Origin: a virus
Virus record (IMG/VR): IMGVR_UViG_3300036861_000387
Coordinates: 1-60,242 of that record
DNA: 60,242 nucleotides
Strand: one strand, 5' to 3'
In this document: piece after piece, positions 37,783 to 58,080 of the stretch
Layout: every line of letters starts with the position of its first letter
How positions within the stretch are numbered: position 1 is the first letter of the stretch
The notes under the pieces: model-generated
Databases searched by the model: none
What the model saw: only the letters and a program-made list of their open reading frames with translations
What the model was told of the DNA's origin: nothing
Translations under genes and position numbers: made by a program

Positions 37783-37785
37783 CGG

Positions 37786-38265
37786 TCAGACCACCCGCTG
37801 CAACCGCATCCAGCTACTGGCCAGGACGGTGGTGGCGGTCGCGTCCGACGCCAACTGGGCCCACTGGAGCTGCAAGGTCCCGGCGGTGGAACCGACCTGG
37901 AGGATGCCGGTGGCGTGGGCCACGACCCGGTTGCCGGCCCCGGTCCCGATCGCGCCGACGCCCTCCCCGGCGCCGGTGGCCACATGGGCCATCTTGATCG
38001 ATGCCGACTGCGCCGCCGCGCTGGTGGTGATGCCGCCGGGGGTCCAGTCGATGGTCGCGCCGGCGGGGAACGTGAAGCCGATCTGGATGTCGCCGGTGGT
38101 GGCACCGTCGTAGATCAGCCAGAGTTCCAGCAGGTAGGTCGCGTTGGCGGCGACCTGGAGCAGCAGGTGGTCGTCGTTCTGCAGGACCGCCGAGCTTGTC
38201 ACCGACTCGTTGGCGGTCTTGCGGACGTACAGGGCCGGGTGATCGACGGGCCGGGCGAGCGGCAT
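37786..38265 (-). CDS. virion beta protein (159 aa)
   Basis: Nearly all beta strands with Gly/Ala/Thr loops (YLLELWLIYDGATTGDIQIG and FTFPAGATIDW), a pattern of small phage tail-decoration proteins. Next to the hub-like gene and the hydrolase. Confidence 0.6.
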   Translation of the reverse strand: MPLARPVDHPALYVRKTANESVTSSAVLQNDDHLLLQVAANATYLLELWLIYDGATTGDIQIGFTFPAGATIDWTPGGITTSAAAQSASIKMAHVATGAGEGVGAIGTGAGNRVVAHATGILQVGSTAGTLQLQWAQLASDATATTVLASSWMRLQRVV

Positions 38266-38266
38266 G

Positions 38267-38683
38267 CTAGGTCAGCTCCGTAATCCGGCACGCCCCGGCG
38301 GCGGCTGACCAGATCCCGGTGATGATCCCCGTGTAGACGACATCGGTCGGGGTCTCGAAGTAGGCGCCGGGACCGAGCTGCACCGTGTAGACGGTCGTGG
38401 AGGCCCCCGATGCCAGGGCCAGGTACAGCGTCGCGGTCGAGTCGTTGTAGAAGGTCGCCTTCACGCGGCTGGTGTTGGCCGATAGCAGCGTCGTCGTTGA
38501 GACGGCCCCGTTGACCGAGGTGATCGTGCCGGTCGCTGAGCGGACGGGGCGGACCGCCAGCGCCTGGCCGACGACCTCGGCGATGGTGGCGGCGCTCTCG
38601 TCCCCCAGCACCATGACTTGGCGGTGTTCGCTGCCGATGGTGCGGGTGTCGATGCTGGTCCCTGAGCCGGATGTGATTGCCAC
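38267..38683 (-). CDS. virion beta protein (138 aa)
   Basis: GTG start with no clear ribosome site. C-terminal half (VKATFYNDSTATLYLALASG, VQLGPGAYFETPTDVVYTGI) is the fold used by small head or tail decorating proteins. Confidence 0.6.
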   Translation of the reverse strand: MAITSGSGTSIDTRTIGSEHRQVMVLGDESAATIAEVVGQALAVRPVRSATGTITSVNGAVSTTTLLSANTSRVKATFYNDSTATLYLALASGASTTVYTVQLGPGAYFETPTDVVYTGIITGIWSAAAGACRITELT

Positions 38684-38713
38684 ACTAGAATCTGCGATGG
38701 TGATCCCCGTCCC

Positions 38714-39784
38714 TCAGTAGGGCCGTGGCCGGTTGAGCTGGGACAGGCTGGTGACCGCCACGTACGCCGACAGGTTGCTCGCGCTCGAGTTGATCCGGTG
38801 GGTGCAGCACGCGGACTCGCCCGATTCCCAGTACACCCATGCCTTGATGTTCGGGTAGCGGTTCTCGGTGACCGCAAGGCCCCAGTCGTCGAAGATCGGG
38901 TCCATCGCGTTGGTCGGCGAGGTCGGATGGTCGCTTGGAGACCACTCCCCGATCATGATCGGCTTGTCGGTCGCGCCCGACTTGGTGTAGGTCTGGGAGT
39001 CGTCGATGTCGACGGCACCGACGCCGGTGGCCCACTTGTAGAAGCGGTACTTGCCGGTGTCGTCCACGCCGGCCTGCGCCGGGTACTCCCCGAAGGCCTC
39101 GAAGAACGGGTCGTTGGTGCCGCCGGCGCAGAACGCGGGGCAGGTGATCGGGTAGGGCTCGTAGCCGAGCCAGTCGACGTAGTCATCACCCGGGTACAGG
39201 GTGCCCCAGAGGTTGGGGCGGGTCTTGTAGCCGGTCATGATCCACATGTAGATCACGCTGGTCACCCCGCGGGCGACGAAACGGTCGCGGACCCGCTGGA
39301 ACGCCGAGGCGTAGGCGGCGGCGGTGCCGAAGCTGCCGCCGCCTTCGGTGCAGTCGTCCTCCGGCTCGTGGTGGAAGGCCATGAACGTCTTGACGCCGGG
39401 GTGGGAGGCCTCCCACTCGACGATGTTGTCGGCGATGGCGTTGATGCGGGTGTCTTGGGAGCCGGTGTTGATCGCCGTCCAGGTCGTGTCGGCGGGCTTC
39501 AGGTTCCACAGCAGCATCCGGCCGCCGTCGATGTAGCCCTGCTGGGTGGTGCCGGGGAAGTTCTCCGCTGAGGTGTCGTAGTGGGCGAAGTTGCGGTAGA
39601 CGTGGGCGATGTCGACGGTGCGGCCGAGGTCGGCCTCGTGCTCGCTGAGCGGGCGGGCGCCGGGGGAGTTGCCCAGCCACGCCCCCGAGCTCGGAACGTA
39701 GATGTCGTTGACATCCGGTGGGGTCACCGGGTTGATCAGGGTCGGGGTCAGCGCCGCGGTCTGCGGGGAGGTGAGGATCGCCAT
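38714..39784 (-). CDS. GH26-like glycoside hydrolase, tail-associated (356 aa)
   Basis: TGATG-coupled to the tape measure. The barrel strands VKTFMAFHHEPEDD (acid/base Glu140 in HHEP) and KPIMIGEWSP (nucleophile Glu280) are the two catalytic positions of clan GH-A family 26 (mannanase/xylanase type). VDWLGYEPYPI and NIKAWVYWE lie in between and after as expected. Probably degrades a host surface polysaccharide at the tail tip during adsorption. Confidence 0.75.
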   Translation of the reverse strand: MAILTSPQTAALTPTLINPVTPPDVNDIYVPSSGAWLGNSPGARPLSEHEADLGRTVDIAHVYRNFAHYDTSAENFPGTTQQGYIDGGRMLLWNLKPADTTWTAINTGSQDTRINAIADNIVEWEASHPGVKTFMAFHHEPEDDCTEGGGSFGTAAAYASAFQRVRDRFVARGVTSVIYMWIMTGYKTRPNLWGTLYPGDDYVDWLGYEPYPITCPAFCAGGTNDPFFEAFGEYPAQAGVDDTGKYRFYKWATGVGAVDIDDSQTYTKSGATDKPIMIGEWSPSDHPTSPTNAMDPIFDDWGLAVTENRYPNIKAWVYWESGESACCTHRINSSASNLSAYVAVTSLSQLNRPRPY

Positions 39785-42501
39785 CAGCGGCCGTCGCGGT
39801 AGACCAGGGACCGCTGGCCCTTGCGGATCAGCGGCGACAGGCGGTGGCCGTCCAGCTCCACCACCGGCGGGTTGGCGCGCAGTACCGCAGCGAGCTTGTC
39901 GTAGTCGAAGCCGACCGGCTCGGGCCGGCCGGTGCCGTTGTAGGCCAGCGACAGGCCCAGCGGCAGCAGCCCGCCCTGGTCGTAGCCGCGGGGTCGTACC
40001 CGCGGGTCGACTGCCTGCAGCGATCCGTACCGGTGGACGGCGTAATTGGCGCCGGCGTAACTGTTGGCCAGCGGATTGATCGACACGCCGTACAGGAACG
40101 GGCCGACGCCCCGGAACCGGCCAGCGTAGGCCGCGAACGTGCCGCGGATCACCTGGGCACCACCGACACTTGGGTGGCCAGCGGCCCAGTTGGAGTCCCA
40201 GCGGTTGACCGCCGACCAGTTCCCGCCCGACTCCCACATGATGCGCCGCGCCCACGCCATCCATTCGGCGGCGCGACCGACCAACCGCGCAGTGAGCTGC
40301 GCGATCTGGTTGACGCTGCCACTGACGCCGCCGGGGATGAGTAGCTTGAAGCGGCGTTCGATGGCGTGGCCGGTCGCATCGGCGACACGGAAGATGCTCT
40401 GTTGGACCGCGTTCATGTACCCGGCCGGGAAGCCGCCAGCGATGCCGCCGCGCTGGAACCCAGGGATGCCCATCTCGCGCGCCCAGGCGACGAACTCGGG
40501 CCGTCGTGCCTTCTCCTTGGGGACGACCGCTTCGCCGCCCTCCAGCAGCGCCGGGAACCGGTCGCCGCCGCCATAGCCCGGCACCCGCCAGCCGTGCTGG
40601 GCGCCGACGATGTCGTGCATCGAGAAGCCCGCCGGTGGCGTGAACGTGGACTTCAGCTTGATCGGGATGTCCTTGCCGCGCAGCTTGTTCACGCGGTCCT
40701 GGATCTTGTCGAGCTGGGTGTTGACCGTCTCCTTGGCCTTCTTGACCGCCTCTTCCGCCTTACGGAACGGCGCGCCCATGGGGCCGGGGAGCTTGCCCAT
40801 CACCCGCAAGATGCCCGCGACCATCGCGAACTGGAAGTTCAGCCAGCCGCGTAGCAGCCCGATGATGAAGTTGACGGCGGTGGCGACCTTGCCTTTCACC
40901 GCGTCCCACACCGCATGGACGATCCGGCGGAAGGTCTCGCTCTTCTTGTAGGCCAGCACGATCCCGGCGACCAGCAGCGCGATGGCGGCGATCACCAGGC
41001 CGATCGGGTTGGCGGTCAACGCGGCGTTCAGCAGCCACTGCACGCCCGCCCACACCTTGGTCGCTGCCGCGGCGACCTTGCTCGCGACTGCGGTGGCGAT
41101 GGTGGCAGCACGTTGCCGCAGCAGGGCCAGCGTCCCGACCTGGGTCGCCCCGGTGGCGCCCTTCTGGATCGCGGTGCCCACCAGCGTGGCACCGGTCGCC
41201 TCCTTGGTCGCCACCGCGTGCGCCTTGACCGCCCGGGCGAGCAGGAAGTTCGACACGACCTGCGCCGCCTGGATCGGCAGCGACGCCACCGCCGCGACGT
41301 TGCCGGCCGCCTGGGCGACCTTGTAGGCAAGGAACCCGGCGACCAGCACCGGCAGGGCCTTGACGACCAGATCCATGTGGCCGCCGATGAAGTCCAATGC
41401 CGCCCCGCCGAGGTTCAGCGCCGACGCCAGCCGCGAGACCTCCGGGGCGGCAGGGCGGACCTGGCTGCGCGCCTCCCCCAGACGCTTGCCGATCCGGTCG
41501 ATGACCTCGGCAACCTTCGGGCCGACCTGCTCCAGCTTGGCGACGCCCTGGCCGATGAACCGCTCGAAGTCGATCCCCTGGATCGAGCGGGACACCACCC
41601 GCGCCAGGCTGCTGAAGACCTTCTCGACCCGCGGCCCATGCTTCTCAGCCAGCGCCTGCAGTTGCGGCAGCAGGAACGAGTTGATCGCCCGGGTGACCCG
41701 TAGCACCCCGGGCAGGAAGAACTGCCCGATGGTGGTGGAGATCTCCACCAGCCTGGCCTTGGCGATCCGCTGCTGGTTGGCCTGCGCTCCCGCGGTCCGA
41801 GCGAAGTCACCCTGCGCCCGCGAGGAGTCCCGCAGCATGATCGAGTAGATCGCCTGGGCCTTCTCGGCGGCGGTCAGGTCCTTGGCGCTCTTCTTGTGGG
41901 TAAGCCGCAGCGCCTCCTGCTCGACACGGGCGGCGTTGATGTTGGGGATGAACCGCTGCAGCGCGTCGTACTCGCCGCGGAACGCCGACTGCTGGGCATT
42001 CAGTACATCGGAGATGTCGGCGTTGTTGAAGGACGCGAGGTCGGCAGACAGCTCCACCATCCGCTTGCTCATCTTGGTCGCCGGGTTCAGCCCGAGGCCG
42101 AGCTGGCGGAACATGTCGCCGAACGCCGCGGCGTTGCCGATCGCCTCGTTGCGGGTCAGCCCCATGGCCGACACCGACCCGCGCGACCACTGCTGGATCG
42201 CCTTGGCGTTGCGGCCGAAGATGTGCTCGCTCTTGGAGAGGGTCTCGTTGAGGTCCGAGGCGCGGCCAACCGCCTTGCCGATCTCCCGGGTCGCTAGCAC
42301 CGTCGCGCCAGCCAGCCCCACGCCGATGGCGACCGAGGCGGTCTTCAGCCCGTGCGCGAACCGGCGGCCGAAGTGGCGGGAAGCCTCCTGGCCGGCACGG
42401 CCCGCTGGGGTCTGGACCTGCGAGGACAGGCGACGCCCGAAGTCGGCGGCGAGTTGGGAGTGGATCGAGAGATAGGCGTCACCGGCGGAGACCCCAGGCA
42501 C
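39784..42501 (-). CDS. tape measure protein with SLT domain (905 aa)
   Basis: GTG start. N-terminal half is long helix ([20 protein letters not shown] and on), the middle has hydrophobic membrane-type segments ([16 protein letters not shown]), and residues 735-830 form an SLT transglycosylase domain (MWESGGN with Glu757, [26 protein letters not shown]). It sets tail length and locally opens the wall for DNA entry. Confidence 0.9.
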
Positions 42502-42522
42502 ACCTCACCCCTCATTGTCGTT

Positions 42523-42528
42523 CATACT
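42523..42528 (+). promoter_or_regulatory. -10 element of a leaderless transcript
   Basis: CATACT, 7 bases before the ATG at 42536, with no ribosome site. Equivalent hexamers precede the ATG at 45283 and 47978. No -35 box is evident. Confidence 0.4.
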
Positions 42529-42535
42529 TGCGGAC

Positions 42536-42703
42536 ATGGACGATCAGCAGGACCACCGCGCCGAGATCGGGCGGCAGGCTCGCAGCGCAGAGCGGTGGGC
42601 GAACCTCTCCATGGGGCTGTCCAGCTGCGCGCTGGTGCTGCTGGTGCTCCCGCTGCTGCTCGGCATCGCCGTGTTCATCTGGGTCTACCTGGCGCTGCGC
42701 TAG
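42536..42703 (+). CDS. plus-strand small membrane protein inside the tail operon (55 aa)
   Basis: Runs against the surrounding genes. N-terminal charged part (MDDQQDHRAEIGRQARSAER), then a long hydrophobic span (ALVLLVLPLLLGIAVFIWVY). No ribosome site; likely a leaderless message. Sits exactly between tape measure and tail chaperone genes, and its TAG shares CTA with the opposing stop. A cargo (moron) gene; a membrane location fits exclusion or lysogen functions. Confidence 0.65.
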   Translation: MDDQQDHRAEIGRQARSAERWANLSMGLSSCALVLLVLPLLLGIAVFIWVYLALR

Positions 42704-43134
42704 CTCTCGCTGTAGACCACCCGAGTGCCGTCGCCGGTGAAGAACGCGCGGATCTCGGCGGCGGTGCTCATGCGCGGCACCTCCGTCGTCTCCACCTGCC
42801 CGCCACCGCCCGGCCGCGGCACTGGGACGACCTCCGGGTGGGGCGGCTTGAACCAGGCGGCGTGCAGCAGCGCCACGACCTCGCCGAGCCGGTCGACGGT
42901 GCGGGCCAGCAGCTCCTCGGTGTCGCCCCAGGTGGCACGGTCGCCTAGGTCTGCGCGGACCGTCAACGAGGCACGCGGCAGCCCCTGGATCAGGGTGTGG
43001 AGCCGGCGGACCCCGACCGCTTGCGGCCCGTAGCAGGCTTGGCCGAGATCGAGGGAGTAGAAGCGCTGGAAGTCGGCCTCGAGCTCGGCCCACCGTTGGT
43101 CGATGAACGAGCCGAGGCCGGCGATTCCGGGAGG
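42700..43134 (-). CDS. tail assembly chaperone, -1 frame extension (T part)
   Basis: This frame has no start codon of its own before a conserved block (FQRFYSLDLGQACYGPQAVG, RRLHTLIQGLP) typical of actinophage tail assembly proteins, so it must be reached by frameshifting from the gene at 42990-43391. It continues through WGDTEELLARTVDRLGEVVA to 42700. A TTG at 42966 would miss the conserved block. Confidence 0.8.
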   Translation of the reverse strand, partial: PPGIAGLGSFIDQRWAELEADFQRFYSLDLGQACYGPQAVGVRRLHTLIQGLPRASLTVRADLGDRATWGDTEELLARTVDRLGEVVALLHAAWFKPPHPEVVPVPRPGGGGQVETTEVPRMSTAAEIRAFFTGDGTRVVYSES

Positions 43135-43391
43135 TCGACCGCGTACAGCTCGGCGATCGCCAGCAGGTCGTCATCGTCGGGGAACGTGAGCCGCATCTCG
43201 GCCCAGTCGAGGGGGTCGATCAGCAGCAGTTGGACGGCCTCCACCAGCTTGCCTTCGTTGAGGAGCTGCGTGAATTCCAGCGGCATCCGTGGACGCAGCC
43301 GGTAGGTCTTGCTGCCCAGCGTCACCTCATGCGGGGCGAGGTCCGCCTCCGCGCGGGCGGCCCGCCGGGCGTCCAGGTCCAGTGTGGCCAT
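42990..43391 (-). CDS. tail assembly chaperone, zero-frame product (G part, 133 aa)
   Basis: Residues 20-86 (LGSKTYRLRPRMPLEFTQLL, PDDDDLLAIAELYAVDL) are the conserved chaperone part. After residue 86 the zero frame becomes low-complexity Ser/Pro, while the -1 frame stays conserved. The short and fused forms together chaperone the tape measure in siphophages. Confidence 0.85.
   Translation of the reverse strand: MATLDLDARRAARAEADLAPHEVTLGSKTYRLRPRMPLEFTQLLNEGKLVEAVQLLLIDPLDWAEMRLTFPDDDDLLAIAELYAVDLPESPASARSSTNGGPSSRPTSSASTPSISAKPATGRKRSGSAGSTP
43128..43134 (-). other. probable -1 ribosomal frameshift site
   Basis: The minus strand reads GAC-CTC-CCG in the zero frame and CCT-CCC in the -1 frame. 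A TGA in the -1 frame at 43171-43173 and the conserved block right after 43128 confine the slip to about 40 bases. No canonical X-XXY-YYZ heptamer is present. Confidence 0.6.
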
Positions 43392-43394
43392 GTA

Positions 43395-43817
43395 CTACCT
43401 CCCGGTGATCGCAGCCATCCGCCGCGGCGATGGCAGCCCACGTCGGCCACCGCCGGTAGCGGGGCCTGCCAGGGCAGCGGTGAGCACGGCGAACCCAGCC
43501 CGCTCGGCGGCGCGGGTGAGAACGTGGCGGGCGCGCTGTCCGCCGGTGCGGGACCGCCAGCCGTACTCAGCCCAGTGCGATTTCCAGTCCGTCGCATTGA
43601 CGCGGCCGACCAGCTCACCCCGCTCGTCCAGGCCATGCTCAGCGACGATGCCGCGGACGTAGCCGCCGCGCTGGTAGAACTCGGCCCGGCCGATCGCCTG
43701 CGCCTCGGCGACGATCCGGTCGGCGATCTCCCCCAGGGCACGCTCCAGCGGGCCGCGGGTGAAGATCGACCCGGTGAGCTCGGCCTCCAGGTTGGGATTG
43801 ACGCGGAGGATCGCCAC
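43395..43817 (-). CDS. head-tail joining or tail completion protein (140 aa)
   Basis: Helical N-terminus (GPLERALGEIADRIVAEAQA), central NATDWKSHWAEYGWR and a basic C-terminus, like HK97 gp10-type proteins. Position just before the chaperone and after the tail tube fits. Confidence 0.6.
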   Translation of the reverse strand: MAILRVNPNLEAELTGSIFTRGPLERALGEIADRIVAEAQAIGRAEFYQRGGYVRGIVAEHGLDERGELVGRVNATDWKSHWAEYGWRSRTGGQRARHVLTRAAERAGFAVLTAALAGPATGGGRRGLPSPRRMAAITGR

Positions 43818-43820
43818 CGC

Positions 43821-44375
43821 TCAGGCCATGGCGGGGTCGTCGGTGAGGATGTAGGCGAGCTCGGTGCCGGAGGACGGCGCCATGGCCCCAAACGTCAAAG
43901 GCAATGCGACAGCGCCGCCACGAGTGACATTGCTCTCTCCGCTTTCGGTTACCATGCACCTCCCGATCACGGCGCGGTAGTTGATGGTCCCGTCGATCCA
44001 CTGGACGCCCAGGACCCGCTCGTCGATGGTCGGCGCGGAGGAGACCGAGAACTTGTAGCTGCCACTGCCCTGGTTGACGACCGTGCCGCCGCCGAGCCAC
44101 AGCGGCAGCGAGGTCTCGTTCCACTGGAGCAGGGAGAAGTTGATGGTGAACTGGACCTCTGTGACCAGGTAGCGGATAGCGCTGATCGACTGCCAGGCGC
44201 GGACCTGCTCGGTGGTGAGCGCCCGCCCGATCGTCACGCCGTCCTCGGTCGCGTAGCCCAGGTCGGTGAAGCCGGTCCACGCGGCGGCCATGTTGACCGG
44301 GCCGGCTGTGCCCGACGGGGCGATGTAGATGTTGCCGTTGGCTCCGACGCGAACCTCGCTGCCAGCGATTGGCAT
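43821..44375 (-). CDS. major tail (tube) protein (184 aa)
   Basis: AAGGAGG ribosome site. SEVRVGANGNIYIAPSGTAG and FTDLGYATEDGVTI are typical openings of actinophage tail tube proteins; the remainder is beta-barrel with a hairpin, and AVALPLTFGA near the end. Should polymerise as hexamer rings. Confidence 0.8.
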   Translation of the reverse strand: MPIAGSEVRVGANGNIYIAPSGTAGPVNMAAAWTGFTDLGYATEDGVTIGRALTTEQVRAWQSISAIRYLVTEVQFTINFSLLQWNETSLPLWLGGGTVVNQGSGSYKFSVSSAPTIDERVLGVQWIDGTINYRAVIGRCMVTESGESNVTRGGAVALPLTFGAMAPSSGTELAYILTDDPAMA

Positions 44376-44438
44376 GGATGCCCTCCTTCAGGCATGGGAG
44401 CAGGCGGGCTCGCGCCCGTAGTTCGGGTGGTGAGGGGG

Positions 44439-44945
44439 CTAGGCGCTGGCGCCGATCAGCACGATCGAGTAGGTCACGCTCGTACCGGCGCCGGAGTTGG
44501 CGATCCGCAGCAGGTCGCCGGTGCCGGCGGTGACGGCGTAGGCGGTAGCGTCGGAGGCGGCCACCAGCAGCAGCCCACCGGGGCGGACCGTGACGGTGTG
44601 GGTGGCGGCGCCGACCCAGTTGACGAAGGCGTTGGTGGCGGCGGCGCCGACGATCACGTTGTTGGTGTTGCCGGCGTCGGCGGCCACGACCAGCGTCTTG
44701 ATCCGCGCGAAGGTGAGGGTGGCGCCGAAGGCATCGGTGAGCACCCCGGCGAGGTCGAGGTCCTCGTTGGCGGAGGCGGTCAGGGTGCGGGTGTCGTGGA
44801 AGATCCGGTCGGCCTGGTTGGCGCCGGTCCCCGACGCCAGCGCGACCGCGCGGGAGAACCCCAGCGGCGCGGTCGCGGTGGCCAAGTCCAGGAGGCTGGT
44901 GTGGATGGCGTCGACCGACACCTTGACCGTGGTGTCCAGCGGCAT
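44439..44945 (-). CDS. virion beta protein (168 aa)
   Basis: AAGGAG ahead of ATG. The segment LTFARIKTLVVAADAGNTNN with VTVRPGGLLLVAASD recurs in small phage head or tail decoration proteins. Probably a tail-surface component. Confidence 0.6.
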   Translation of the reverse strand: MPLDTTVKVSVDAIHTSLLDLATATAPLGFSRAVALASGTGANQADRIFHDTRTLTASANEDLDLAGVLTDAFGATLTFARIKTLVVAADAGNTNNVIVGAAATNAFVNWVGAATHTVTVRPGGLLLVAASDATAYAVTAGTGDLLRIANSGAGTSVTYSIVLIGASA

Positions 44946-44963
44946 GCGGGGCTCCTTGTCTGG

Positions 44964-45251
44964 CTACTCGGCGGCCGCGGCCACGGCGGCGTCGATGATC
45001 TGGGTGCGGGTGACGGAGCGGGTGAAGGTGACGCCGCGGCGGCGGGCCTCCTCCAGCAGCTCCAGATCGGGCAGGTCGGCGAGTTCCTCGTCGGGCACGC
45101 GGGCCGCGATGCGGGCGGCAGCCCGGCGGATCGTCGCCGTCTGCTCCTCCAGCTCGGTCTCGATCTGCTGCTCGGACTGCTCGGCGCTGGCGGCCTCCTC
45201 GGCCTCAGCCGCCTCCGCCTTGGCGCCCTGATTGCGCGACCTGCTGGGCAT
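44964..45251 (-). CDS. acidic coiled-coil protein (95 aa)
   Basis: AAGGAGGAACCAA before ATG at 45251. Glu/Ala-rich N-terminal coil, then a small helical domain (VPDEELADLPDLELLEEARR, RTQIIDAAVAA) of the SAP/HeH kind common among actinophage structural clusters. Confidence 0.55.
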   Translation of the reverse strand: MPSRSRNQGAKAEAAEAEEAASAEQSEQQIETELEEQTATIRRAAARIAARVPDEELADLPDLELLEEARRRGVTFTRSVTRTQIIDAAVAAAAE

Positions 45252-45270
45252 TTGGTTCCTCCTTGCGTGC

Positions 45271-45276
45271 GACAAT
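45271..45276 (+). promoter_or_regulatory. -10 element of a leaderless transcript
   Basis: GACAAT, 6 bases before the ATG at 45283, with no ribosome site. Same arrangement as at 42523 and 47966. Confidence 0.4.
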
Positions 45277-45282
45277 CAGCAG

Positions 45283-45480
45283 ATGGACGCTGAGCAGATC
45301 GTTCGGGCGCTGGCCGCGCATCACGCGCCAGAGGATGAGGCCGGCAGCTACGATGGCTCTGGAGTCAGCACTTGCGCCCTCTGCGAGGCCCCTTGGCAGC
45401 AGGGCGACGAACTGGCATGGCACGACCCCGGCTGCCCGTGGCGGCTGGCACGGGAGTGGATCACGGCCAATCCCGGCTAA
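45283..45480 (+). CDS. plus-strand zinc-motif protein inside the tail operon (65 aa)
   Basis: MDAEQIVRALAAHHAPEDEA, then CALCEAPWQQGDELAWHDPG followed by Cys: the same Cys-Cys-His-Cys module as at 8808 and 30456. Oriented against its neighbours, divergent from 45251 and convergent with 45477, stops interlocked at CTAA. Likely independently expressed cargo. Confidence 0.65.
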   Translation: MDAEQIVRALAAHHAPEDEAGSYDGSGVSTCALCEAPWQQGDELAWHDPGCPWRLAREWITANPG

Positions 45481-45956
45481 CTGATCGCCTGCCATGCAAT
45501 ACGGAAGTCGACCCGGACGCGGATGATCGCGACCTCGTTGTCGGTGCCCGGCCAGGCGCCCCACACCGCCTGATCCATGATCGGTGGCCGGTAACGGGTG
45601 GTCGGCGACAGATCGCCGCCAACGGTGGGGTCGTCGCGGAGCTGCTGAGCGATCTCGCCGAGGAACAGCCCGACCCGTTCCAGCGCCGCCCGGTCGTTCT
45701 CGGGAGTGCTGCCGGGCACCCGCGCGAACCCGTAGCCGGCCAGGGTGAGCGGCTCGACGGTGGCGTGGCTGGCCAGCCCGGCGCCCCACCCGAGCCAGGT
45801 CGCCCCGGTCATCGTGACCCGCGACAGCACGATAGCCTCGCTGTCGCGCCATGAGCCCCGGTCGATGAGGTAGATCGGGACGCCAGCCAGGGCGGTGCGG
45901 GTGAGCAGTTGGGTGCGGAAGTTGACCAGGAACCCGGGAACGGTGACCTCGGCCAT
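45477..45956 (-). CDS. tail terminator-like protein (159 aa)
   Basis: Alpha/beta pattern of tail completion proteins: FLVNFRTQLLTRTALAGVPI, a central AGYGFARVPG, then TDNEVAIIRVRVDFRIAW. Order connector - this gene - tail tube is as in other siphophages. Confidence 0.6.
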   Translation of the reverse strand: MAEVTVPGFLVNFRTQLLTRTALAGVPIYLIDRGSWRDSEAIVLSRVTMTGATWLGWGAGLASHATVEPLTLAGYGFARVPGSTPENDRAALERVGLFLGEIAQQLRDDPTVGGDLSPTTRYRPPIMDQAVWGAWPGTDNEVAIIRVRVDFRIAWQAIS

Positions 45957-46883
45957 CTACGCGACCGCCACCCCGCCACCCGCAGTACGGTTGAGCCACC
46001 TATCCAAGTCCCGAATCCCGGTCCAGCGCATGAACCCGCCACGGCCCGTCTCCGACGGCTCGTAGGTGTAGGACATGCCGTCGGGGGTAGTGACGGTCTG
46101 GGCGCTTGAGAACCCGCTGGGGTCCAGGAACTTCGCGGCCCACGCCATCGCGGCGTGGCGACCCTCCCGATCTTCGATCCGCTCTAGGCCGGAGACGTAC
46201 TCGACGGTGACGTTGGCAACGCCGTCCGGGAAGTACCCGCTGTAGCGGTAGTTACTGGTGGCCAGCAGGATGCCGGACGGCTTCAGCGTGTAGTCGGCCA
46301 CCGTCTTTGTGGCCCCGTCGACGGTGACCGAGAGCAGCTTGGTGGCCTTCAGGCCCGGGTCGGTGAGGACCACGCTGGCGCGGCCGTCACCATCGCGGGT
46401 CTCCCGGCAGAACCTCGGCACCGGATGGAACCCCAGGATCGTGCGGAACTCCTCGGTGACGACGACGCGGGCGTCCATGAGCCGCTGGGTGGAGAACGGC
46501 GGCACCGCGCCCTCGGCGAACGGATAGCCGTTGCCGACCTTCAGGCCGCGCAGCTCCGACAGGGTGAACAGCAGCCCACCGACCCACTCGACCCGCGAGT
46601 ACAGCACCTGGGTCTTGCCGCCGATGGTGCCGGTCCAGGTGACCGGGTCCAGGTAGGTGACCTCGGCCTGGCCGTCCAGCACGATGCGGTACTGCCCGGT
46701 GGTGCGGGGCGTGGGGGTCGACCAGGACCCGCTGGCGACCGGGGCCGGGGTGAGCGCGCTGCCGTCGGGGTACTTGGCCACGACCGTGGGGACGCCCGAG
46801 TCAAGGTCGGTGGGGACGCCGTCGACGCTGAACGTCTCGGTGACCGTGACGCTGGTGCCCTTCAGGGCCTGCTGGCCGGCCAC
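45957..46883 (-). CDS. head-tail connector-like protein (308 aa)
   Basis: N-terminal 90 residues form a beta domain (VTVTETFSVDGVPTDLDSGV). The second part (LDARVVVTEEFRTILG-like helix, CRETRDGDGRASVVLTDPGL and AAKFLDPSGFSSAQ) resembles gp6-type connectors fused to a beta domain. Confidence 0.6.
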   Translation of the reverse strand: MAGQQALKGTSVTVTETFSVDGVPTDLDSGVPTVVAKYPDGSALTPAPVASGSWSTPTPRTTGQYRIVLDGQAEVTYLDPVTWTGTIGGKTQVLYSRVEWVGGLLFTLSELRGLKVGNGYPFAEGAVPPFSTQRLMDARVVVTEEFRTILGFHPVPRFCRETRDGDGRASVVLTDPGLKATKLLSVTVDGATKTVADYTLKPSGILLATSNYRYSGYFPDGVANVTVEYVSGLERIEDREGRHAAMAWAAKFLDPSGFSSAQTVTTPDGMSYTYEPSETGRGGFMRWTGIRDLDRWLNRTAGGGVAVA

Positions 46884-46886
46884 GGG

Positions 46887-47378
46887 TCAGAGGGTGTAGC
46901 GGTTGAGGCCGTTGGCGTGCCAGAGCACCGAGAACAGTCCTGCGGTCACGCTCTGAGCCCCACCGAAGAAGTGGTAGGAGACACCCTGGTCGGCGACGGT
47001 GCCGCCGGTGATGGTGTCGTCGTAGACTAGGCAGCCGTAGACGTTGGCCAGGGTCACGTTGACGGTGCCGGTGAGGTCAGCGGCATCGAACATGACGGTG
47101 TCGGCCGCCGGGGCGGTGAACGTCTTGGACGCCAGCGCCCGGCCGGCGGCGACCCACTCCGACCCGGTGGAGACCTCGTTGCCGACGACCCACTGGCCAA
47201 CACCATAGGCGCTGTTGGCCAGGGTCGCGTCGTTGTCGGGGGTGCCGGTGTTGTTGAACAGGGCGGCCTTGACGGTGTCGGAGTCAAGGCCCGTGAAGCC
47301 GGTGCCCGACCCCTGCCACATCGGCCCGATCATCCACTCGCGGAAGATGTGGCTGCCCTCGGTGGCGGTCCAGGCCAT
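46887..47378 (-). CDS. virion beta protein (163 aa)
   Basis: Pattern MAWTATEGSHIFREWMIGPM, VKAALFNNTGTPDNDATLAN and a beta C-terminus is frequent in actinophage structural clusters. TGATG-coupled to the coiled-coil gene. Confidence 0.6.
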   Translation of the reverse strand: MAWTATEGSHIFREWMIGPMWQGSGTGFTGLDSDTVKAALFNNTGTPDNDATLANSAYGVGQWVVGNEVSTGSEWVAAGRALASKTFTAPAADTVMFDAADLTGTVNVTLANVYGCLVYDDTITGGTVADQGVSYHFFGGAQSVTAGLFSVLWHANGLNRYTL

Positions 47379-47644
47379 CAGCCATCAGCCCCCTCATCGG
47401 CCTCGGCGCGCAGGCGCTTGGCCTCGGCCTTGGCGGTCTTGAGGGACTCCTTGATGCCCTCCAGCTTCGCCTCGATGACCTTGACGGCGGCCTCGGCCTC
47501 ATCGGCGTACCGCTCGCGCTGCTGCTGCACGGTCAGCGGGAATTCGCCGCGGCGGGCGAGCTCCGCCTTCAGCTCCTCGACCGACGCCGAGGTGAGGACG
47601 GTGGCGTCGTAGGCCGCCCCGTTACCCTCCGCGACTTCCGTCAC
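47378..47644 (-). CDS. coiled-coil virion protein (88 aa)
   Basis: N-terminal SAP-like helix pair (ASVEELKAELARRGEFPLT) and a charged coil (AAVKVIEAKLEGIKESLKTA). Short acidic end. Confidence 0.5.
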   Translation of the reverse strand: MTEVAEGNGAAYDATVLTSASVEELKAELARRGEFPLTVQQQRERYADEAEAAVKVIEAKLEGIKESLKTAKAEAKRLRAEADEGADG

Positions 47645-47964
47645 GTCAGCACTCCTTTCGCGCTGCCACCCGCGGTCGCGCAGGGCGCGAACACGGCCAC
47701 GTCGTTGCCATCATTCCTGGTTGTCTCTACCCGCATGATCGGCCGGCCCTCGCCGTCGGTGGTGACCAACTCCCGGCCGATGTAGTCCTCGCGCTCGACC
47801 GCCTCGACCTTGCAGCGCGTGCCCGCCGGCACCAGTGGGGCGTTCAGCCCTTTGAGGCCCCGGCAGGCGTGGAACGGCATCGGCGCGTCCGGGCGGGTGG
47901 TCCTGGCCCGTAGTGTGCAGTTGGGGCAGTTCCACAACCGCTCGGCGATCAGCACGGCTGGCAT
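47641..47964 (-). CDS. zinc-motif protein in the structural operon (107 aa)
   Basis: CPNC early, then FHACRGLKGLNAPLVPAGTR with Cys, and a beta segment. This pattern of C-x2-C ... H-x-C-x-G is common to small proteins near actinophage connectors. ATG 13 bases from the divergent plus-strand gene. Confidence 0.55.
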   Translation of the reverse strand: MPAVLIAERLWNCPNCTLRARTTRPDAPMPFHACRGLKGLNAPLVPAGTRCKVEAVEREDYIGRELVTTDGEGRPIMRVETTRNDGNDVAVFAPCATAGGSAKGVLT

Positions 47965-47965
47965 C

Positions 47966-47971
47966 TACACT
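47966..47971 (+). promoter_or_regulatory. -10 element of a leaderless transcript
   Basis: TACACT ends 6 bases before the ATG at 47978, where transcription would begin at the start codon. No ribosome site and no clear -35. Confidence 0.45.
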
Positions 47972-47977
47972 CCCGGC

Positions 47978-48265
47978 ATGGATGAGCCGTTCGGATTTGC
48001 CGTCCAACGGATTGATGCCGAGTTCGGTCCAGAGCAGGAGCCGACCGAGTACGGCACGATGCGCTACGTCAAGCACCCGCTTGACCCGCCGCACTGGGCC
48101 ATCTCGCTGCCGCACCAGTGCGAACGCTGGGACATCGCTGGCGGCTACGGCGAAGGGCTCCCGCAGGCTGAGGCCCTCGCCGAGCTGGAGCGGTTCATGG
48201 CTGAGGCGCAGCAGGCGTTGGCAGCCTTGCGGGAAGGCCAGGAGTTCGGCGACCCAGACGCCTAG
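47978..48265 (+). CDS. plus-strand hypothetical protein inside the structural operon (95 aa)
   Basis: Starts MDEPFGFAVQRIDAEFGPEQ; the middle has HPLDPPHWAISLPHQCERWD; ends in a charged helix (AEALAELERFMAEAQQALAA). Third of the wedged genes, divergent from 47964, convergent with 48262, with stops interlocked at CTAG. Function unknown; soluble. Confidence 0.65.
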   Translation: MDEPFGFAVQRIDAEFGPEQEPTEYGTMRYVKHPLDPPHWAISLPHQCERWDIAGGYGEGLPQAEALAELERFMAEAQQALAALREGQEFGDPDA

Positions 48266-49905
48266 AGGCTCGACCCTCCTTCCACGATCCCGGCCCCAGC
48301 CAGTGCCCCCTCGACCAGCCCGGTGGCCTCGCTGGCGCCCTCGACCCACCGTGGCGGCGGCACGGGTGGCGGCACGAAGACGGTGGCGTCCAGCGCCTGG
48401 CCGGTTCCGACCGCGGCCTCGGCGGCGGCCAGCACCGCCGCGGTCGCGTCCAGCGCGGTGCCGCTGCCGGTGGCCACATCGGCCTGGGCCTCGCGGGCGG
48501 CCTGCACGACCGCGTCCAGCGCCTGACCGGTGCCAGTGGCCACGCCAGCGCCGACGGCGACGTGCACGGTGGCGTCCAGCGCGGTGCCGGTCCCGGTGGC
48601 GGCCTCCGCCTGGGCGTCGGTGCGGACCGCAGTGGATACCGTCGCGTCGTAGGCGGTTCCGGTGCCAGCCGCCTGCCCGGCGGTCGCAGAGATGGCCGCC
48701 AGGGCGTCCTGGGCGGCCCCTGCGCCGCTTGCGGCGTCCGCCTGAGCTCCGATACCCCCCTGGGCGTCTGGGGCCGAGCCTGCGCCGCTGGCGGCCTCGG
48801 CAGGGACCCCGAGGCTCGCGGTGGCGTCTGGGGCCGAGCCTGCGCCGCTGGCGGCCTCCGCCTGGGCGTTGGTGCCAGCCGCCGTCGAGACGGTCGCGTC
48901 GTAGGCCGTCCCCGCGCCCGTAGCGACATCGGCGTTGACACCGAGACTGGCGGTGCCGTCCGGGGCGCTGCCTGCCGCTGTGGCCACATCGCCGGTGGCC
49001 GCGAGCGCGACGCCTGCATTAAGCGCCTGGCCGGCTCCCGTCGCCACCTCGGCGGCTGCACCGAGATGGGCGGTCGCGTCGGGCGCGCTACCAGCGGCGG
49101 CCGCCTGGTCGGCGTTGGCGGTGACCGCAGCCTGGGCGTCCAGTGCCGCGCCGGCCCCGGTTGCGACCTCGGCCTGGGCATTGGTGCCCGATGGCGCCCC
49201 TGCGGGTTTCAGCGCGACGATCGCCAGGCCCGCCGCGGTCGACCCGGTCGTGGTCCAGGTGACCGACTCCGACCCGCCGTCCCACACCTGGTAGGCGGCC
49301 CGCCCGGCGCTCGCTGAGGCGCGGTCCCAGTCGGTCAAGTCGGTGTAGCCGGAGGTCTGGGTCGTCGGCGCCGCCGCGATCGGGCACTGCATCGCGGCGA
49401 TGACCAGCCCACCCGCCACCGTCGGCGTGATCGCCGGGGTGGTGTGCGAGGTCGCGGCGGCCTCACCGGAAGGGTCGGGGCTGGCCTGGTCGAGGATGCC
49501 GGTGGTGGCCAGGCCCGACCACTCTGAGACGTGCCAGTTCCAGGAGTTGGTGACGGTGTCGGACCAGGAGATGGTGCCGGGGCTCTGCGCGTTCGGGACG
49601 ACCCAGATCTCGATGTGGGTGTTGCCAGCGCCGGACTGGTAGCCGCGGGCGATCCGCGTCCAGGTGTTGCCGGCCGTGTCGGTCATCGTGGCGATGGACC
49701 CGGTCGACCCGGAGCTGCGACCGACGATGTTGACCAGGCAGTTCCCGTTGGTGGAGGTGAACGCCTGGCTGGTGCCGGTCACGTTGCCGTCGGAGCCCGT
49801 GACCTGCTGGACGAGGGTCGGGCCGGTCGGGGCGGCCTGCCACAGCCGGACCGGCGGCCGCCGCGGCGCCCGCGTGTCCCGCCGGAAGGTGGCCGAGCGG
49901 GCCAT
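48262..49905 (-). CDS. repeat-containing virion appendage protein (547 aa)
   Basis: Residues 25-235 form a beta domain seen in many actinobacterial surface and phage proteins (MTDTAGNTWTRIARGYQSGA, IEIWVVPNAQSPGTISWSDT, VSEWSGL). Residues 243-510 are 13 imperfect repeats of about 20 residues built on ATGAGxALDA. The end (VEGASEATGLVEGALAGAGI) has its own short repeats. Likely an extended fibre or head appendage. Confidence 0.75.
   Translation of the reverse strand: MARSATFRRDTRAPRRPPVRLWQAAPTGPTLVQQVTGSDGNVTGTSQAFTSTNGNCLVNIVGRSSGSTGSIATMTDTAGNTWTRIARGYQSGAGNTHIEIWVVPNAQSPGTISWSDTVTNSWNWHVSEWSGLATTGILDQASPDPSGEAAATSHTTPAITPTVAGGLVIAAMQCPIAAAPTTQTSGYTDLTDWDRASASAGRAAYQVWDGGSESVTWTTTGSTAAGLAIVALKPAGAPSGTNAQAEVATGAGAALDAQAAVTANADQAAAAGSAPDATAHLGAAAEVATGAGQALNAGVALAATGDVATAAGSAPDGTASLGVNADVATGAGTAYDATVSTAAGTNAQAEAASGAGSAPDATASLGVPAEAASGAGSAPDAQGGIGAQADAASGAGAAQDALAAISATAGQAAGTGTAYDATVSTAVRTDAQAEAATGTGTALDATVHVAVGAGVATGTGQALDAVVQAAREAQADVATGSGTALDATAAVLAAAEAAVGTGQALDATVFVPPPVPPPRWVEGASEATGLVEGALAGAGIVEGGSSL
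48376..49179 (-). repeat. 13 tandem ~60-base repeats inside a coding region
   Basis: Each unit encodes (A)-(E/D)-x-A-(T/S)-G-(A/T)-G-x-A-x-D-A followed by 6-9 variable residues. Copies differ by substitution more than by length, so the array is old or under selection. Such arrays can change copy number by slippage. Confidence 0.85.
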
Positions 49906-49908
49906 CGG

Positions 49909-50388
49909 CTACCCCAGCTCGTGGACAGTGAAGCTGAACGCGTAGTTGCCGGCCGGAGGCGCCACGTTGGACTTCATCGCCAGGCCGTTGCCGGTGCCCG
50001 CCTGGACCAGGATGTATTCCTCCGGGGTCGGCGACCAGTCGAACGTCCAGCCCGTCGCCGAGCCCCACCCGTATTCGATGAAGTCGCCGTCGGTGCCCTC
50101 CCCGGAGGCGGTGTGCCCGGCGGTGAAGCTCGCGTCGGCATCGCTCGGGTTGTGCCGCTTGAACGTGGTCGCCGCGACGCTGGTGTAGGTCCCGGCGGCG
50201 GTTTTCTCGATCAGGCGGATGCGGGCGTTGGCCGCCGACGGGATGGTCGCCTGCGCCAGCGAGATCTGCGCACGGACCACCACCAGCGGCTTGGTCGCCG
50301 AGGCATGCACGACCAGGTTGGTGACCGCCCCGGGGTTGGTGATGACGATGGGGACGGTGTAGGCCTGCGAGTGGACCAGCACAGCCAT
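49909..50388 (-). CDS. virion beta protein (159 aa)
   Basis: Beta sandwich pattern (AYTVPIVITNPGAVTNLVVH, VVVRAQISLAQATI, FDWSPTPEEYILVQAGTGNG). Between two appendage genes; probably part of the same structure. Confidence 0.55.
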   Translation of the reverse strand: MAVLVHSQAYTVPIVITNPGAVTNLVVHASATKPLVVVRAQISLAQATIPSAANARIRLIEKTAAGTYTSVAATTFKRHNPSDADASFTAGHTASGEGTDGDFIEYGWGSATGWTFDWSPTPEEYILVQAGTGNGLAMKSNVAPPAGNYAFSFTVHELG

Positions 50389-50400
50389 GCCAGCAGGCTC

Positions 50401-51114
50401 CTATCTGCGGTAGTTGGGGCCGCGGCGGCGGCGGAACCCCTCGGCGGCGGCGGGCGGGTCGACTTCCGCCAGGACCAGCGCGCTGATCAACTGATCATCA
50501 GAGGCCAGCGTGGTATACCCGTAGGTCGAGGAGGCTGCGTCGGCGCCGCCGAAGCGGGTGTAAACCATCCCGACCGCCACGCCCGGGTCGTGGCCGGCTT
50601 GGTAGGTCTCCCCGGTTTGCAGCCCGGTGGTGACCACGCTGGAACCGCCGTAGCAGTGCACCGCCAGCCCCGCCCAGCCCGACAGCGTCCCCGAGTGGGT
50701 GACCGTGATCGATGGGTTGGCGATGATCCCGAGATCCTGGCCGTTGTTGGCGTCGACCACGACGTTCTTCCCGGCCGCCGCCAGGATGGTGAACACGAAG
50801 CCGTGCTTGTTGGTGGCGGCGTTCACGTCCACCGCGACCGTTTGGGTGCCCTGCGGGATGGCCGAGTCGCCGTAGTAGACGTAGGTGCGCATCAGCTCGG
50901 TGACGGTGCGGGCGTCCGACCGCACCCGGGTCAGCGAGATCCCGCCATAGGTGATGCCGACGACCTCGTCGGCCGACCCCTGCGGCTGGGTGATGAGCGC
51001 CACGACGGCCTTGACGCCGGAGGCGGCCCCCGGATGCGACCAGCTCGTGTCGGCGGTGAACGAGACTGTGTCGGTGGCGGAGTTCTCGCTGAGCACGTCC
51101 AGGATGAGCGCCAT
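50401..51114 (-). CDS. virion appendage beta protein (237 aa)
   Basis: The pattern SWSHPGAASGVKAVVALITQ, VVGITYGGISLTRV, YVYYGDSAIPQGTQTVAVDV repeats the domain layout of the first half of the gene at 48262. Basic tail RRRRGPNYRR. Confidence 0.6.
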   Translation of the reverse strand: MALILDVLSENSATDTVSFTADTSWSHPGAASGVKAVVALITQPQGSADEVVGITYGGISLTRVRSDARTVTELMRTYVYYGDSAIPQGTQTVAVDVNAATNKHGFVFTILAAAGKNVVVDANNGQDLGIIANPSITVTHSGTLSGWAGLAVHCYGGSSVVTTGLQTGETYQAGHDPGVAVGMVYTRFGGADAASSTYGYTTLASDDQLISALVLAEVDPPAAAEGFRRRRGPNYRR

Positions 51115-51117
51115 CGG

Positions 51118-51846
51118 TCAGCCCATCACGACCGAGCCGCCGGGGTTCAGCAGCGGCGTGGTGGTCGCCGCGTACACCGCCAGCAGCGCGTAATAGCTGT
51201 CGGCGGCGTCGGCGGCTGAGGTGTTGACGGTGGCGGTGCATTCGTAGGTCGCGCCCGCGCTGGTGCCGAACGCCCATGACCAGGACGCGGCGAGTTCCTG
51301 GTTGGTCAGGCTCAGCCGGGCCTCGTCCCGCTCGGTGAAGCCGTTGGTATGCCCGGAGAAGTTCAGCGTCATCCCCGGCGCGGACGCCTGGTGGGTGGTC
51401 AGGTGGGTCGCCAGCGCCACCACCTCGCCGCGGGTGGTCGCCGGGGTCGTCCCAGTCGATAGCGTTGACACCGACGCGCCGCTGGCCGAGTTCTGGCTGT
51501 AGGTCTCGTAGGGGAACACCGGGTCGAGCACGATGTCCCACTCGGTGACCCGCCACGCCCATACCCGCGCCCCAATCGGGTCGGTCCACTGCCAGGTGGA
51601 CTCGCCGGCCGGGATGCCGGAGCGGCGGAACGTCCACAGGATCGGCGAGGCTGGGATGGCGAAGCAATCAAACTGCCAGTTGTCCGGCATGCCAGGCCAC
51701 ACAATCGGGCCGTACATCTCCACGATCACGCTGTGGTCGCCTGACCCGGAGGTCGGGTTGTCGAGGGTGACGTCGACGGTCTGCTGGCCTGCGCCGCCGA
51801 CGGTGCCGGTCTTGGCCTGGACCGCGTTTGCGGCTGACAGCGCCAT
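51118..51846 (-). CDS. virion appendage beta protein (242 aa)
   Basis: Same domain type: VDVTLDNPTSGSGDHSVIVE, WAWRVTEWDIVLDPVFPYET, then GEVVALATHLTTHQASAPGM and YYALLAVYAAT. Third copy in a row of this jelly-roll-like fold. Confidence 0.6.
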   Translation of the reverse strand: MALSAANAVQAKTGTVGGAGQQTVDVTLDNPTSGSGDHSVIVEMYGPIVWPGMPDNWQFDCFAIPASPILWTFRRSGIPAGESTWQWTDPIGARVWAWRVTEWDIVLDPVFPYETYSQNSASGASVSTLSTGTTPATTRGEVVALATHLTTHQASAPGMTLNFSGHTNGFTERDEARLSLTNQELAASWSWAFGTSAGATYECTATVNTSAADAADSYYALLAVYAATTTPLLNPGGSVVMG

Positions 51847-52365
51847 CTACGGGGCGGTGCCGCACCACGGCGCCACGAACGACCCGGCGAACGACCCACC
51901 CGACGGGAAGCTCAGGCTGGCGCTGCCCTCGTACTGGACGTTGTCCATGCGGGTAAAGCTGACGGTGCCCGAGGTGGCCGCGATGTCGTTGCCGAGCCCG
52001 CCGCCCGCCTTGGCCTTCATGAAGTAGGCGCGGACGGTCCGGGTGACGCCGTCGCTGGTGATGAGCTGCACGTCGGGGACGGTGAAGGTGGCCGGCAGGT
52101 CAGCGGCCGGCGGGTACACGGGGGCGCAGTCCGGCAGCGGAATCCAGCCGAGCAGCGCCAGCCGGATCGTCAGCTCGTTGGCGACATACGGGTTCCCGGT
52201 GGCGCAGGCGCCCGCGCAGTCCGACAGCAGCACGACGTGGTTCCACTGCGCCTGCACCCCACCCGCCGGACACAGCAGCCCACCGAAGTTGCCGGCGTAG
52301 GCATCCTGGAGGCCGGTGAGGCTGTTGCCGCTGACCGTACCAGTCGGGTTGGACACAGAACCCAA
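51847..52365 (-). CDS. virion protein (172 aa)
   Basis: TTG start after AAGGAGGAACCTCACC. Contains five Cys (LLCPAGG, SDCAGACATG, PDCAP) and a beta C-terminus (YEGSASLSFPSGGSFAGSFV). Disulfides would suit an exterior head or tail protein. Confidence 0.55.
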   Translation of the reverse strand: MGSVSNPTGTVSGNSLTGLQDAYAGNFGGLLCPAGGVQAQWNHVVLLSDCAGACATGNPYVANELTIRLALLGWIPLPDCAPVYPPAADLPATFTVPDVQLITSDGVTRTVRAYFMKAKAGGGLGNDIAATSGTVSFTRMDNVQYEGSASLSFPSGGSFAGSFVAPWCGTAP

Positions 52366-52568
52366 GGTGAGGTTCCTCCTTGAGGGATTCGGGGTATGCC
52401 AGCGCCCAGGGCGGGTCCGGGGGTCTCGCCGTCGGACGCTCGTCTCCCGGGCCCCACCCCGAGGTCGGACGCTGCGCCGGGTCCGGCCCTGGCATGGGTG
52501 GGGTCGGCCGGGACGGCAGCCAGGCGGGCTGGCAGCGACCTGACCGCCGCCCCAGGCCGTTCGGGGGG
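52366..52568. other. 203-base GC-rich gap
   Basis: The longest space in the late operon. No gene of the leftward set fits. AGCGTCCGAC occurs twice on the minus strand. Its end carries the AAGGAGG of the next gene. A promoter or processing site may hide here but none is clear. Confidence 0.35.
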
Positions 52569-52781
52569 CTACTTGTCGGCGGGCTTGGGCGCGGCCTTGT
52601 CCGCAGGTTTGGCCTGCGCCTTCGGCGCCGCCTTCCTCTCGACGAGGAGGCCCTCGCGGCGGGCCTCCTCGTCCGACAGCTCCGTTCCCGCCGGGTAGGC
52701 CAGGAACGCCGCCGCCGGGTCGCCCTCCTCCACCAGCTTCCCATCCGTGGTCCGGTAGAGACGCTGGTCGACCTTGAACAT
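52569..52781 (-). CDS. small virion-cluster protein (70 aa)
   Basis: Begins MFKVDQRLYRTTDGKLVEEG, a fold typical of small phage head proteins, then Lys/Ala/Pro-rich tail (APKAQAKPADKAAPKPADK). Not further assignable. Confidence 0.55.
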   Translation of the reverse strand: MFKVDQRLYRTTDGKLVEEGDPAAAFLAYPAGTELSDEEARREGLLVERKAAPKAQAKPADKAAPKPADK

Positions 52782-52791
52782 CGGCGGCCTC

Positions 52792-53190: not shown

Positions 53191-53247
53191 CGGCGTCCGT
53201 CCCTCTCTCATCAGCTCTGGTCGCGGCTAGAGCTTGCCTCTTTCACA

Positions 53248-53457: not shown

Positions 53458-53469
53458 GGCTGCTCCTTC

Positions 53470-53745: not shown

Positions 53746-53799
53746 GACAGCCTCCAGCGGGAGGCGGGTGCATCCCGCCTCCCGCGTGTCCGGGCCGGC

Positions 53800-55041: not shown

Positions 55042-55042
55042 G

Positions 55043-56344: not shown

Positions 56345-56359
56345 CCGGCGACCTCCTGG

Positions 56360-57826: not shown

Positions 57827-57828
57827 GG

Positions 57829-58071: not shown

Positions 58072-58080
58072 GGTGTCCTC

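What the first reader, a model, noticed from the sequence alone, without database searches (positions are those of the whole stretch)
42536..48265. Three leaderless-looking plus-strand genes wedged into the minus-strand tail operon
Genes at 42536, 45283 and 47978 run against about 26 kb of late genes. Each begins within 14-35 bases of a divergent neighbour, starts MD(D/A/E), lacks a ribosome site, and has a -10-like hexamer (CATACT, GACAAT, TACACT) 6-7 bases before ATG, so RNA would start at the codon itself. Most genes in this window are either tightly stop-coupled or preceded by a G-rich ribosome site. This looks like one class of independently expressed cargo genes (morons), possibly active in the lysogen.
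Basis: partly seen in the sequence, partly recalled or inferred. Interest (0 to 1): 0.85.

Follow-up and report, generated by a model that had tools for sequence, protein, structure and literature searches.

The report
Leaderless add-on genes in phage operon
A temperate virus of high-GC actinobacteria carries three small extra genes squeezed backwards into its virion-building operon, each with a tiny promoter ending right at the start codon and a stop codon shared with its neighbour, which fits 'cargo' genes that could stay on while the virus is dormant.

Summary
The window is a whole 60,242-bp IMG/VR record of a temperate actinobacterial siphophage. Three plus-strand ORFs (55, 65 and 95 aa; g1-g3) interrupt a 23.8-kb minus-strand head/tail operon. 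They are the only 3 of 123 called genes with a -10-like hexamer 6-7 nt before the start; only 9 of 1,298 ATGs have one. All three lack a Shine-Dalgarno site and are uncoupled. One feature was not in the finding: each stop overlaps the convergent neighbour's stop by exactly 4 bp.

Related contigs support acquisition. The closest (L153/L253) has an empty site for g2: 13 bp where the window has 225. It also carries an unrelated wedge gene elsewhere with the same anatomy (TACGCT-N6-ATGGAC, CTAG stop overlap). Relatives' 4-bp-overlap antisense ORFs show the motif at 6-7 nt six times, against about 0.4 expected.

Best reading: moron-like accessory genes on minimal leaderless host-type promoters, probably active in the lysogen. 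The moron kind is known, and Cluster O mycobacteriophages have a predicted leaderless example (PMC4351075). The shared wedge geometry and its recurrence with unrelated genes are the new part. No transcription data exist here, no terminators were found, and the proteins are orphans of unknown function.

The parts
42536..42703 (+). g1: 55-aa small membrane protein, hydrophilic N-terminus and one hydrophobic C-terminal span (MDDQQDH...LLGIAVFIWVYLALR)
   Evidence: GC by codon position 0.71/0.41/0.95; peak Kyte-Doolittle 2.9; no Pfam, PHROG, NCBIfam or PADLOC family
42523..42528 (+). -10-like hexamer CATACT, 7 nt before the g1 ATG
42700..42703 (.). CTAG: shared 4-bp stop overlap of g1 (+) and the minus gene 42700-42966
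45283..45480 (+). g2: 65-aa acidic protein with Cys/His motif CALC...HDPGC (zinc-knuckle-like, by eye)
   Evidence: GC by codon position 0.73/0.56/0.77; GC3 in the lowest 4% of genes; empty site in L153
45271..45276 (+). -10-like hexamer GACAAT (preceded by TGC, an extended -10), 6 nt before the g2 ATG
45477..45480 (.). CTAA/TTAG: shared 4-bp stop overlap of g2 and the minus gene 45477-45956
45252..45476 (.). 225-bp interval between the two flanking minus genes; the same interval is 13 bp (CAGGAGGACGACC) in L153
   Evidence: flanking proteins 64% and 73% identical
47978..48265 (+). g3: 95-aa acidic protein, low-confidence model of five strands plus a C-terminal helix
   Evidence: GC by codon position 0.75/0.44/0.82; model pLDDT 68.8; no significant fold match
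47966..47971 (+). -10-like hexamer TACACT (exact TANNNT), 6 nt before the g3 ATG
48262..48265 (.). CTAG: shared 4-bp stop overlap of g3 and the minus gene 48262-49905
36421..60172 (-). late operon into which the three genes are wedged: terminase 58081, portal 56360, protease 55043, major capsid 53800, head-tail adaptor 45957, major tail protein 43821, tape measure 39784
21050..21997 (+). tyrosine integrase, evidence that the phage is temperate
   Evidence: Pfam PF00589, E=3.5e-19

Best explanation
g1, g2 and g3 are moron-like accessory genes acquired one at a time at gene boundaries of the late operon. SHOWN: each sits on the strand opposite to the late operon; each has a -10-like hexamer 6-7 nt before its ATG, no Shine-Dalgarno site, and no upstream gene on its strand to be coupled to; each ends in a 4-bp stop overlap; g2 is precisely absent from a related phage. 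INFERRED: host vegetative-sigma RNA polymerase starts at the first base of the ATG, so the mRNA has no leader and is translated as leaderless mRNAs are in actinobacteria. Because the whole promoter fits in the 13-34 bp next to the sense gene's start, the cassette adds a gene without spoiling its neighbours. INFERRED: with the late operon silent in the lysogen these promoters can fire; during lytic growth convergent late transcription would tend to silence them. What the proteins do is a guess: g1 as a small membrane protein would suit a superinfection-exclusion role; g2 is zinc-knuckle-like; g3 is unassigned.
For: Motif at exactly 3 of 123 gene starts, the three wedge genes. No SD and no coupling. 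Empty site for g2: in L153 the homologue of 45477-45956 ends in TAG, then 13 bp containing AGGAGG, then the ATG of the 44964-45251 homologue. Another wedge gene in the same relative, fetched afterwards to test the empty site: TACGCT-N6-ATGGAC, 27-bp divergent gap, CTAG stop overlap, between terminase and the next gene, unrelated sequence. Relatives: antisense ORFs picked by 4-bp stop overlap alone carry the motif at 6-7 nt in 6 non-window cases against 4 hits at 21 other distances (Poisson about 3e-6). L245 carries an unrelated antisense gene with TATCGT-N6-ATG 28 bp from the homologue of the gene beside g3. Six relatives have the tape measure gene directly after its chaperone region with no antisense gene. 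Low GC3 of g2 and g3. Leaderless genes with TANNNT about 12 bp before the start average 19% in Actinobacteria (PMC3160421).
Against: No RNA or protein data. g1 and g2 hexamers deviate from TANNNT at position 1 and no -35 is present. No terminator follows any of the three. GC3 of g1 is ordinary. Coding evidence for g2 is the weakest of the three. A weaker test that used all isolated antisense genes in relatives gave only 7 motif cases against about 2.25 expected (P about 0.008). The empty sites for g1 and g3 are less clean than for g2.
Confidence: 0.72

Rival explanations
1. The three are lytic-phase genes (for example anti-late regulators or packaging-time modulators) with leaderless promoters, not lysogen-expressed cargo.
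For: A predicted leaderless opposite-facing gene in the Cluster O structural operon encodes a DNA-binding protein (PMC4351075). Nothing in the sequence distinguishes phases.
Against: Absent in relatives, so not needed for lytic growth of the group. Late transcription would run head-on through them.
Confidence: 0.15
2. The promoters make antisense RNAs that damp late-gene expression; the ORFs are incidental.
For: Transcripts lacking a terminator would run antisense into tail genes.
Against: ORFs show codon-position GC bias in the right frame, start exactly at the expected distance, and end exactly at the neighbour's stop; the relatives' wedge ORFs encode diverse proteins, including Cys-rich and HNH-like ones, by eye.
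Confidence: 0.06
3. Spurious ORFs or chance hexamers in gaps between real minus-strand genes.
For: Only 4/6 matches to TATAAT; high-GC DNA has many open frames; g2 has weak coding bias.
Against: Motif enrichment, empty site, recurrence in relatives, and no minus gene filling the gaps.
Confidence: 0.05

Closest known systems
Small opposite-strand genes in the virion structural operon of Cluster O mycobacteriophages (Corndog gene 53, promoter PL2; PMC4351075)
   Same: Small genes facing against the structural operon; for Corndog 53 the paper predicts a SigA-like promoter with the start site at the first base of the start codon.
   Different: One predicted leaderless case in phages that lack an integrase and have no reported stable lysogens. 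Here there are three in one temperate genome, with a common wedge geometry and 4-bp stop overlaps. No sequence comparison was possible: the Corndog record was not held.
Morons of lambdoid and Salmonella phages, such as HK97 gp15 and the antisense-encoded ST64B locus STMMW_20121 (PMC7067206)
   Same: Accessory genes, often antisense to lytic genes, independently transcribed, and absent from relatives.
   Different: Classic morons carry a full promoter and a terminator (from my own knowledge of the definition). Here only a -10 at leaderless distance and no terminator.
Leaderless genes of Actinobacteria (PMC3160421, PMC3898074)
   Same: TANNNT-like -10 about 12 bp before the start codon, no SD, no conserved -35.
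   Different: Those surveys cover cellular genomes; two of the three hexamers here deviate at the first T.

Membership tests
Moron (phage accessory gene) | Present in one phage and absent at the same site in a relative | tested here: met
   g2: precise empty site in L153. g1: no antisense gene before the tape measure gene in six relatives. g3: no homologue in any locus, but gene order differs so the site is less clean.
Moron (phage accessory gene) | Own promoter, independent of the surrounding operon | tested here: met
   Predicted -10 at 6-7 nt on the opposite strand; by motif only, no -35, not by RNA.
Moron (phage accessory gene) | Own transcription terminator | tested here: not met
   No terminator-like hairpin with T-run after any of the three; 70-nt folds downstream are no better than shuffles. 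Terminators without U-tracts cannot be excluded.
Moron (phage accessory gene) | Base composition unlike the neighbours | tested here: inconclusive
   GC3 0.77 (g2, 4th percentile), 0.82 (g3, 15th), 0.95 (g1, 93rd).
Moron (phage accessory gene) | Expressed in the lysogen and beneficial to the host | not testable with these tools
   No RNA-seq or host; integrase and repressor-like genes are present.
Leaderless gene | -10 hexamer placed so that transcription starts at the start codon | tested here: met
   Spacers 7, 6, 6; 3 of 123 genes, exactly these. Strict TANNNT only for g3.
Leaderless gene | No Shine-Dalgarno and no translational coupling | tested here: met
   SD energies -1.1, 0.1, -1.5 kcal/mol; no coupled gene.
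Leaderless gene | Mapped 5' end at the start codon | not testable with these tools
   No transcript data.
Cluster O opposite-strand gene (Corndog 53) | Homology to a known opposite-strand structural-operon gene | not tested
   NC_004685 and AY129335 were not in the collections; tblastn of g2 and g3 against 50,697 phage records found nothing.

The most novel reading that the evidence does not exclude
Temperate phages of Actinobacteria share a general cargo format: minimal 'wedge' cassettes of about 0.2-0.4 kb, made of TANNNT-N6/7-ATG plus a small ORF whose stop is merged with the neighbour's stop. These are inserted antisense at late-gene boundaries and exchanged for unrelated genes at the same or other boundaries; leaderless initiation is what lets them be this small.
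Probability: 0.4. Interest if true: 0.65.

Novelty: new variant of a known kind. Interest (0 to 1): 0.5.

Why it matters
Cargo genes in prophages are hard to find from sequence alone. A purely sequence-based signature (opposite strand to the late operon, TANNNT-like hexamer 6-7 nt before ATG, no SD, 4-bp stop overlap) would let lysogen-expressed genes be predicted across actinobacterial phages. It would also show how leaderless initiation, common in these hosts, lets phages add genes at almost no length cost. In the closest relative a gene of this form was found at another gene boundary, which is encouraging.

Tried and rejected
L002, the only viral-contig hit of g3, is an eight-residue chance match in an antisense frame. 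Phylum-wide search of 397 genomes: nothing for g2, and two chance hits for g3 (L103, L104) with stops or unrelated frames. Weak Pfam, PHROG and NCBIfam hits are far below cut-offs; PADLOC empty. The g3 structure model is low confidence with no significant PDB or viral match; the g2 model is poor. Homology of g3 to the L245 wedge gene was considered: 27% over 63 residues, not convincing. The Fisher test of antisense against sense starts was dropped because antisense genes were allowed many candidate starts; the spacing-bin control is used instead. Global DNA alignment of the empty site misplaced the gap, so the empty site is read from the two flanking protein homologies. My gene caller mis-called shadow frames in some high-GC loci (L153, L019), so relative counts are approximate.

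Full report
WHAT THE WINDOW IS. The window is a complete IMG/VR record of 60,242 bp, 70% GC. It encodes a tyrosine integrase (21050-21997), HTH repressor-like proteins including an HTH+DUF5753 protein (24727-25593), and a minus-strand late operon with terminase, portal, protease, major capsid, head-tail adaptor, major tail and tape measure proteins. Capsid relatives at 59-71% identity lie in Saccharopolyspora, Pilimelia, Allokutzneria, Streptomyces and Nocardioides genomes and in actinobacterial MAGs. The host is therefore very probably a high-GC actinobacterium, and the phage is temperate.

OBSERVATION. The three plus-strand ORFs are as described. Divergent gaps are 34, 31 and 13 bp. Hexamers CATACT, GACAAT and TACACT lie 7, 6 and 6 nt before the ATG. 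Among 123 called genes these are the only starts with at least 4/6 TATAAT (A2, T6) at 5-8 nt, and only 9 of 1,298 ATGs on both strands have it at 6-7 nt. They have almost no pairing with the anti-SD and no coupled upstream gene, whereas 107 of 123 genes have one or the other. No sigma70 -35/-10 pair was found in the region. The finding did not mention that each ORF's stop overlaps the convergent minus gene's stop by exactly 4 bp (CTAG, CTAA, CTAG), nor that the second codon is Asp in all three (5 of 120 other genes). The minus block is 23.8 kb, not 26.

ARE THEY GENES. In-frame GC by codon position is 0.71/0.41/0.95 (g1), 0.73/0.56/0.77 (g2) and 0.75/0.44/0.82 (g3), against 0.66/0.52/0.92 for late genes. 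g1 and g3 look like genes; g2 is weaker but is an inserted segment (below). None matches a family in Pfam, PHROGs, NCBIfam or PADLOC. g2 and g3 find no relative in 50,697 phage records, and searches of IMG/VR and 397 actinobacterial genomes gave only chance hits. g1 was not searched against the named phages or the genomes; none of the three has a homologue in the fetched loci.

ABSENCE IN RELATIVES. The best syntenic relative is L153 (15.5-kb contig; flanking proteins 64-74% identical). There the homologue of 45477-45956 ends DFRIAWQAIS-stop exactly as in the window, then 13 bp (CAGGAGGACGACC) lead to the ATG of the 44964-45251 homologue. The window has 225 bp there, holding g2 and its promoter. 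In the same contig a 48262-like protein directly abuts the 45957 homologue, so g3 and the three genes after it are missing as a block. g3 has no homologue beside any of 56 distinct relatives of the gene next to it. In six relatives with a detectable tape measure gene, that gene follows its upstream gene without any antisense gene.

RECURRENCE. The rest of the L153 contig (fetched as L253) contains an antisense gene between the terminase end and the next gene: TACGCT, 6 nt, ATGGAC; 27-bp divergent gap; CTAG stop overlap; 96-aa Cys-containing protein unrelated to g1-g3. I then picked antisense ORFs in all related loci by the 4-bp stop overlap and coding bias alone. In 20 such ORFs the motif occurs at 6-7 nt in six non-window cases (L112, L155, L162, L182, L191, L253) and only four times at 21 other distances (Poisson about 3e-6). 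A looser set (all isolated antisense genes, 19) gives 7 TANNNT cases at 5-8 nt against bins of 4, 0, 3 and 2, which is suggestive only. In L245 the niche beside the 47641 homologue, where g3 sits in the window, holds a different leaderless-looking gene.

HOW IT PROBABLY WORKS. Actinobacteria use leaderless initiation for many genes, with TANNNT about 12 bp before the start (PMC3160421; PMC3898074). A cassette made of such a hexamer and a small ORF needs no leader, no ribosome site and no -35, and so fits between two late genes. In the lysogen, with late genes off, the promoters would be free; in lytic growth convergent transcription would oppose them. These steps are inferred. g1 is a small membrane protein and g2 is zinc-knuckle-like; functions are guesses. 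No terminator was found, so antisense read-through into late genes is possible.

COMPARISON. Morons antisense to lytic genes are known (PMC7067206). For Cluster O mycobacteriophages, small opposite-facing genes in the structural operon are described and one is predicted to be leaderless (Corndog 53). This case differs by three copies in one temperate genome, the merged stops, and recurrence with unrelated genes. The terminator criterion of classic morons was tested and not met, so 'works like a moron' is better supported than 'is a moron in the strict sense'.

VERDICT. Observation confirmed; interpretation largely supported by sequence and comparison but untested at the RNA level. A new variant of a known kind.

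Noticed in passing
window 5149-7548 (-): DNA N6/N4 methylase whose reading frame carries an insert with a LAGLIDADG domain and intein-like ends (CVDADTEILT... to ...VFITGNS), so probably an intein with homing endonuclease.
   Followed up: no
window 42536, 45283, 47978; L253 213-503 of its reverse complement: All four closely comparable wedge genes have Asp (ATGGAC/ATGGAT) as second residue, against 5 of 120 other window genes; may relate to leaderless initiation or be chance.
   Followed up: partly
L162:2733-3056, L182:3474-3632, L245:3162-3377, L253, window 45283-45480: Several unrelated wedge genes encode small Cys-rich, zinc-ribbon-like proteins by eye; two others with -10-like starts (L114, L119) look like HNH endonucleases.
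   Followed up: no
L023:1485-1778 and L223:1137-1430 (antisense): Similar-looking ~97-aa antisense genes in two relatives' late regions, both with a -10-like hexamer 6 nt before the start (TACACT, TATGGT); L023 has a very weak terminase-small-subunit similarity.
   Followed up: no
window 48262-49905 (-): 547-aa late protein with many degenerate repeats (about 78% GC stretch); in relatives its homologue lies on the other side of the 47641-46887 block, so the g3 site coincides with a module junction.
   Followed up: partly
window 42700-43391 (-): Two genes before the tape measure gene sit where siphophage tail-assembly chaperones G and GT usually lie; a frameshift between them was not examined.
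   Followed up: no
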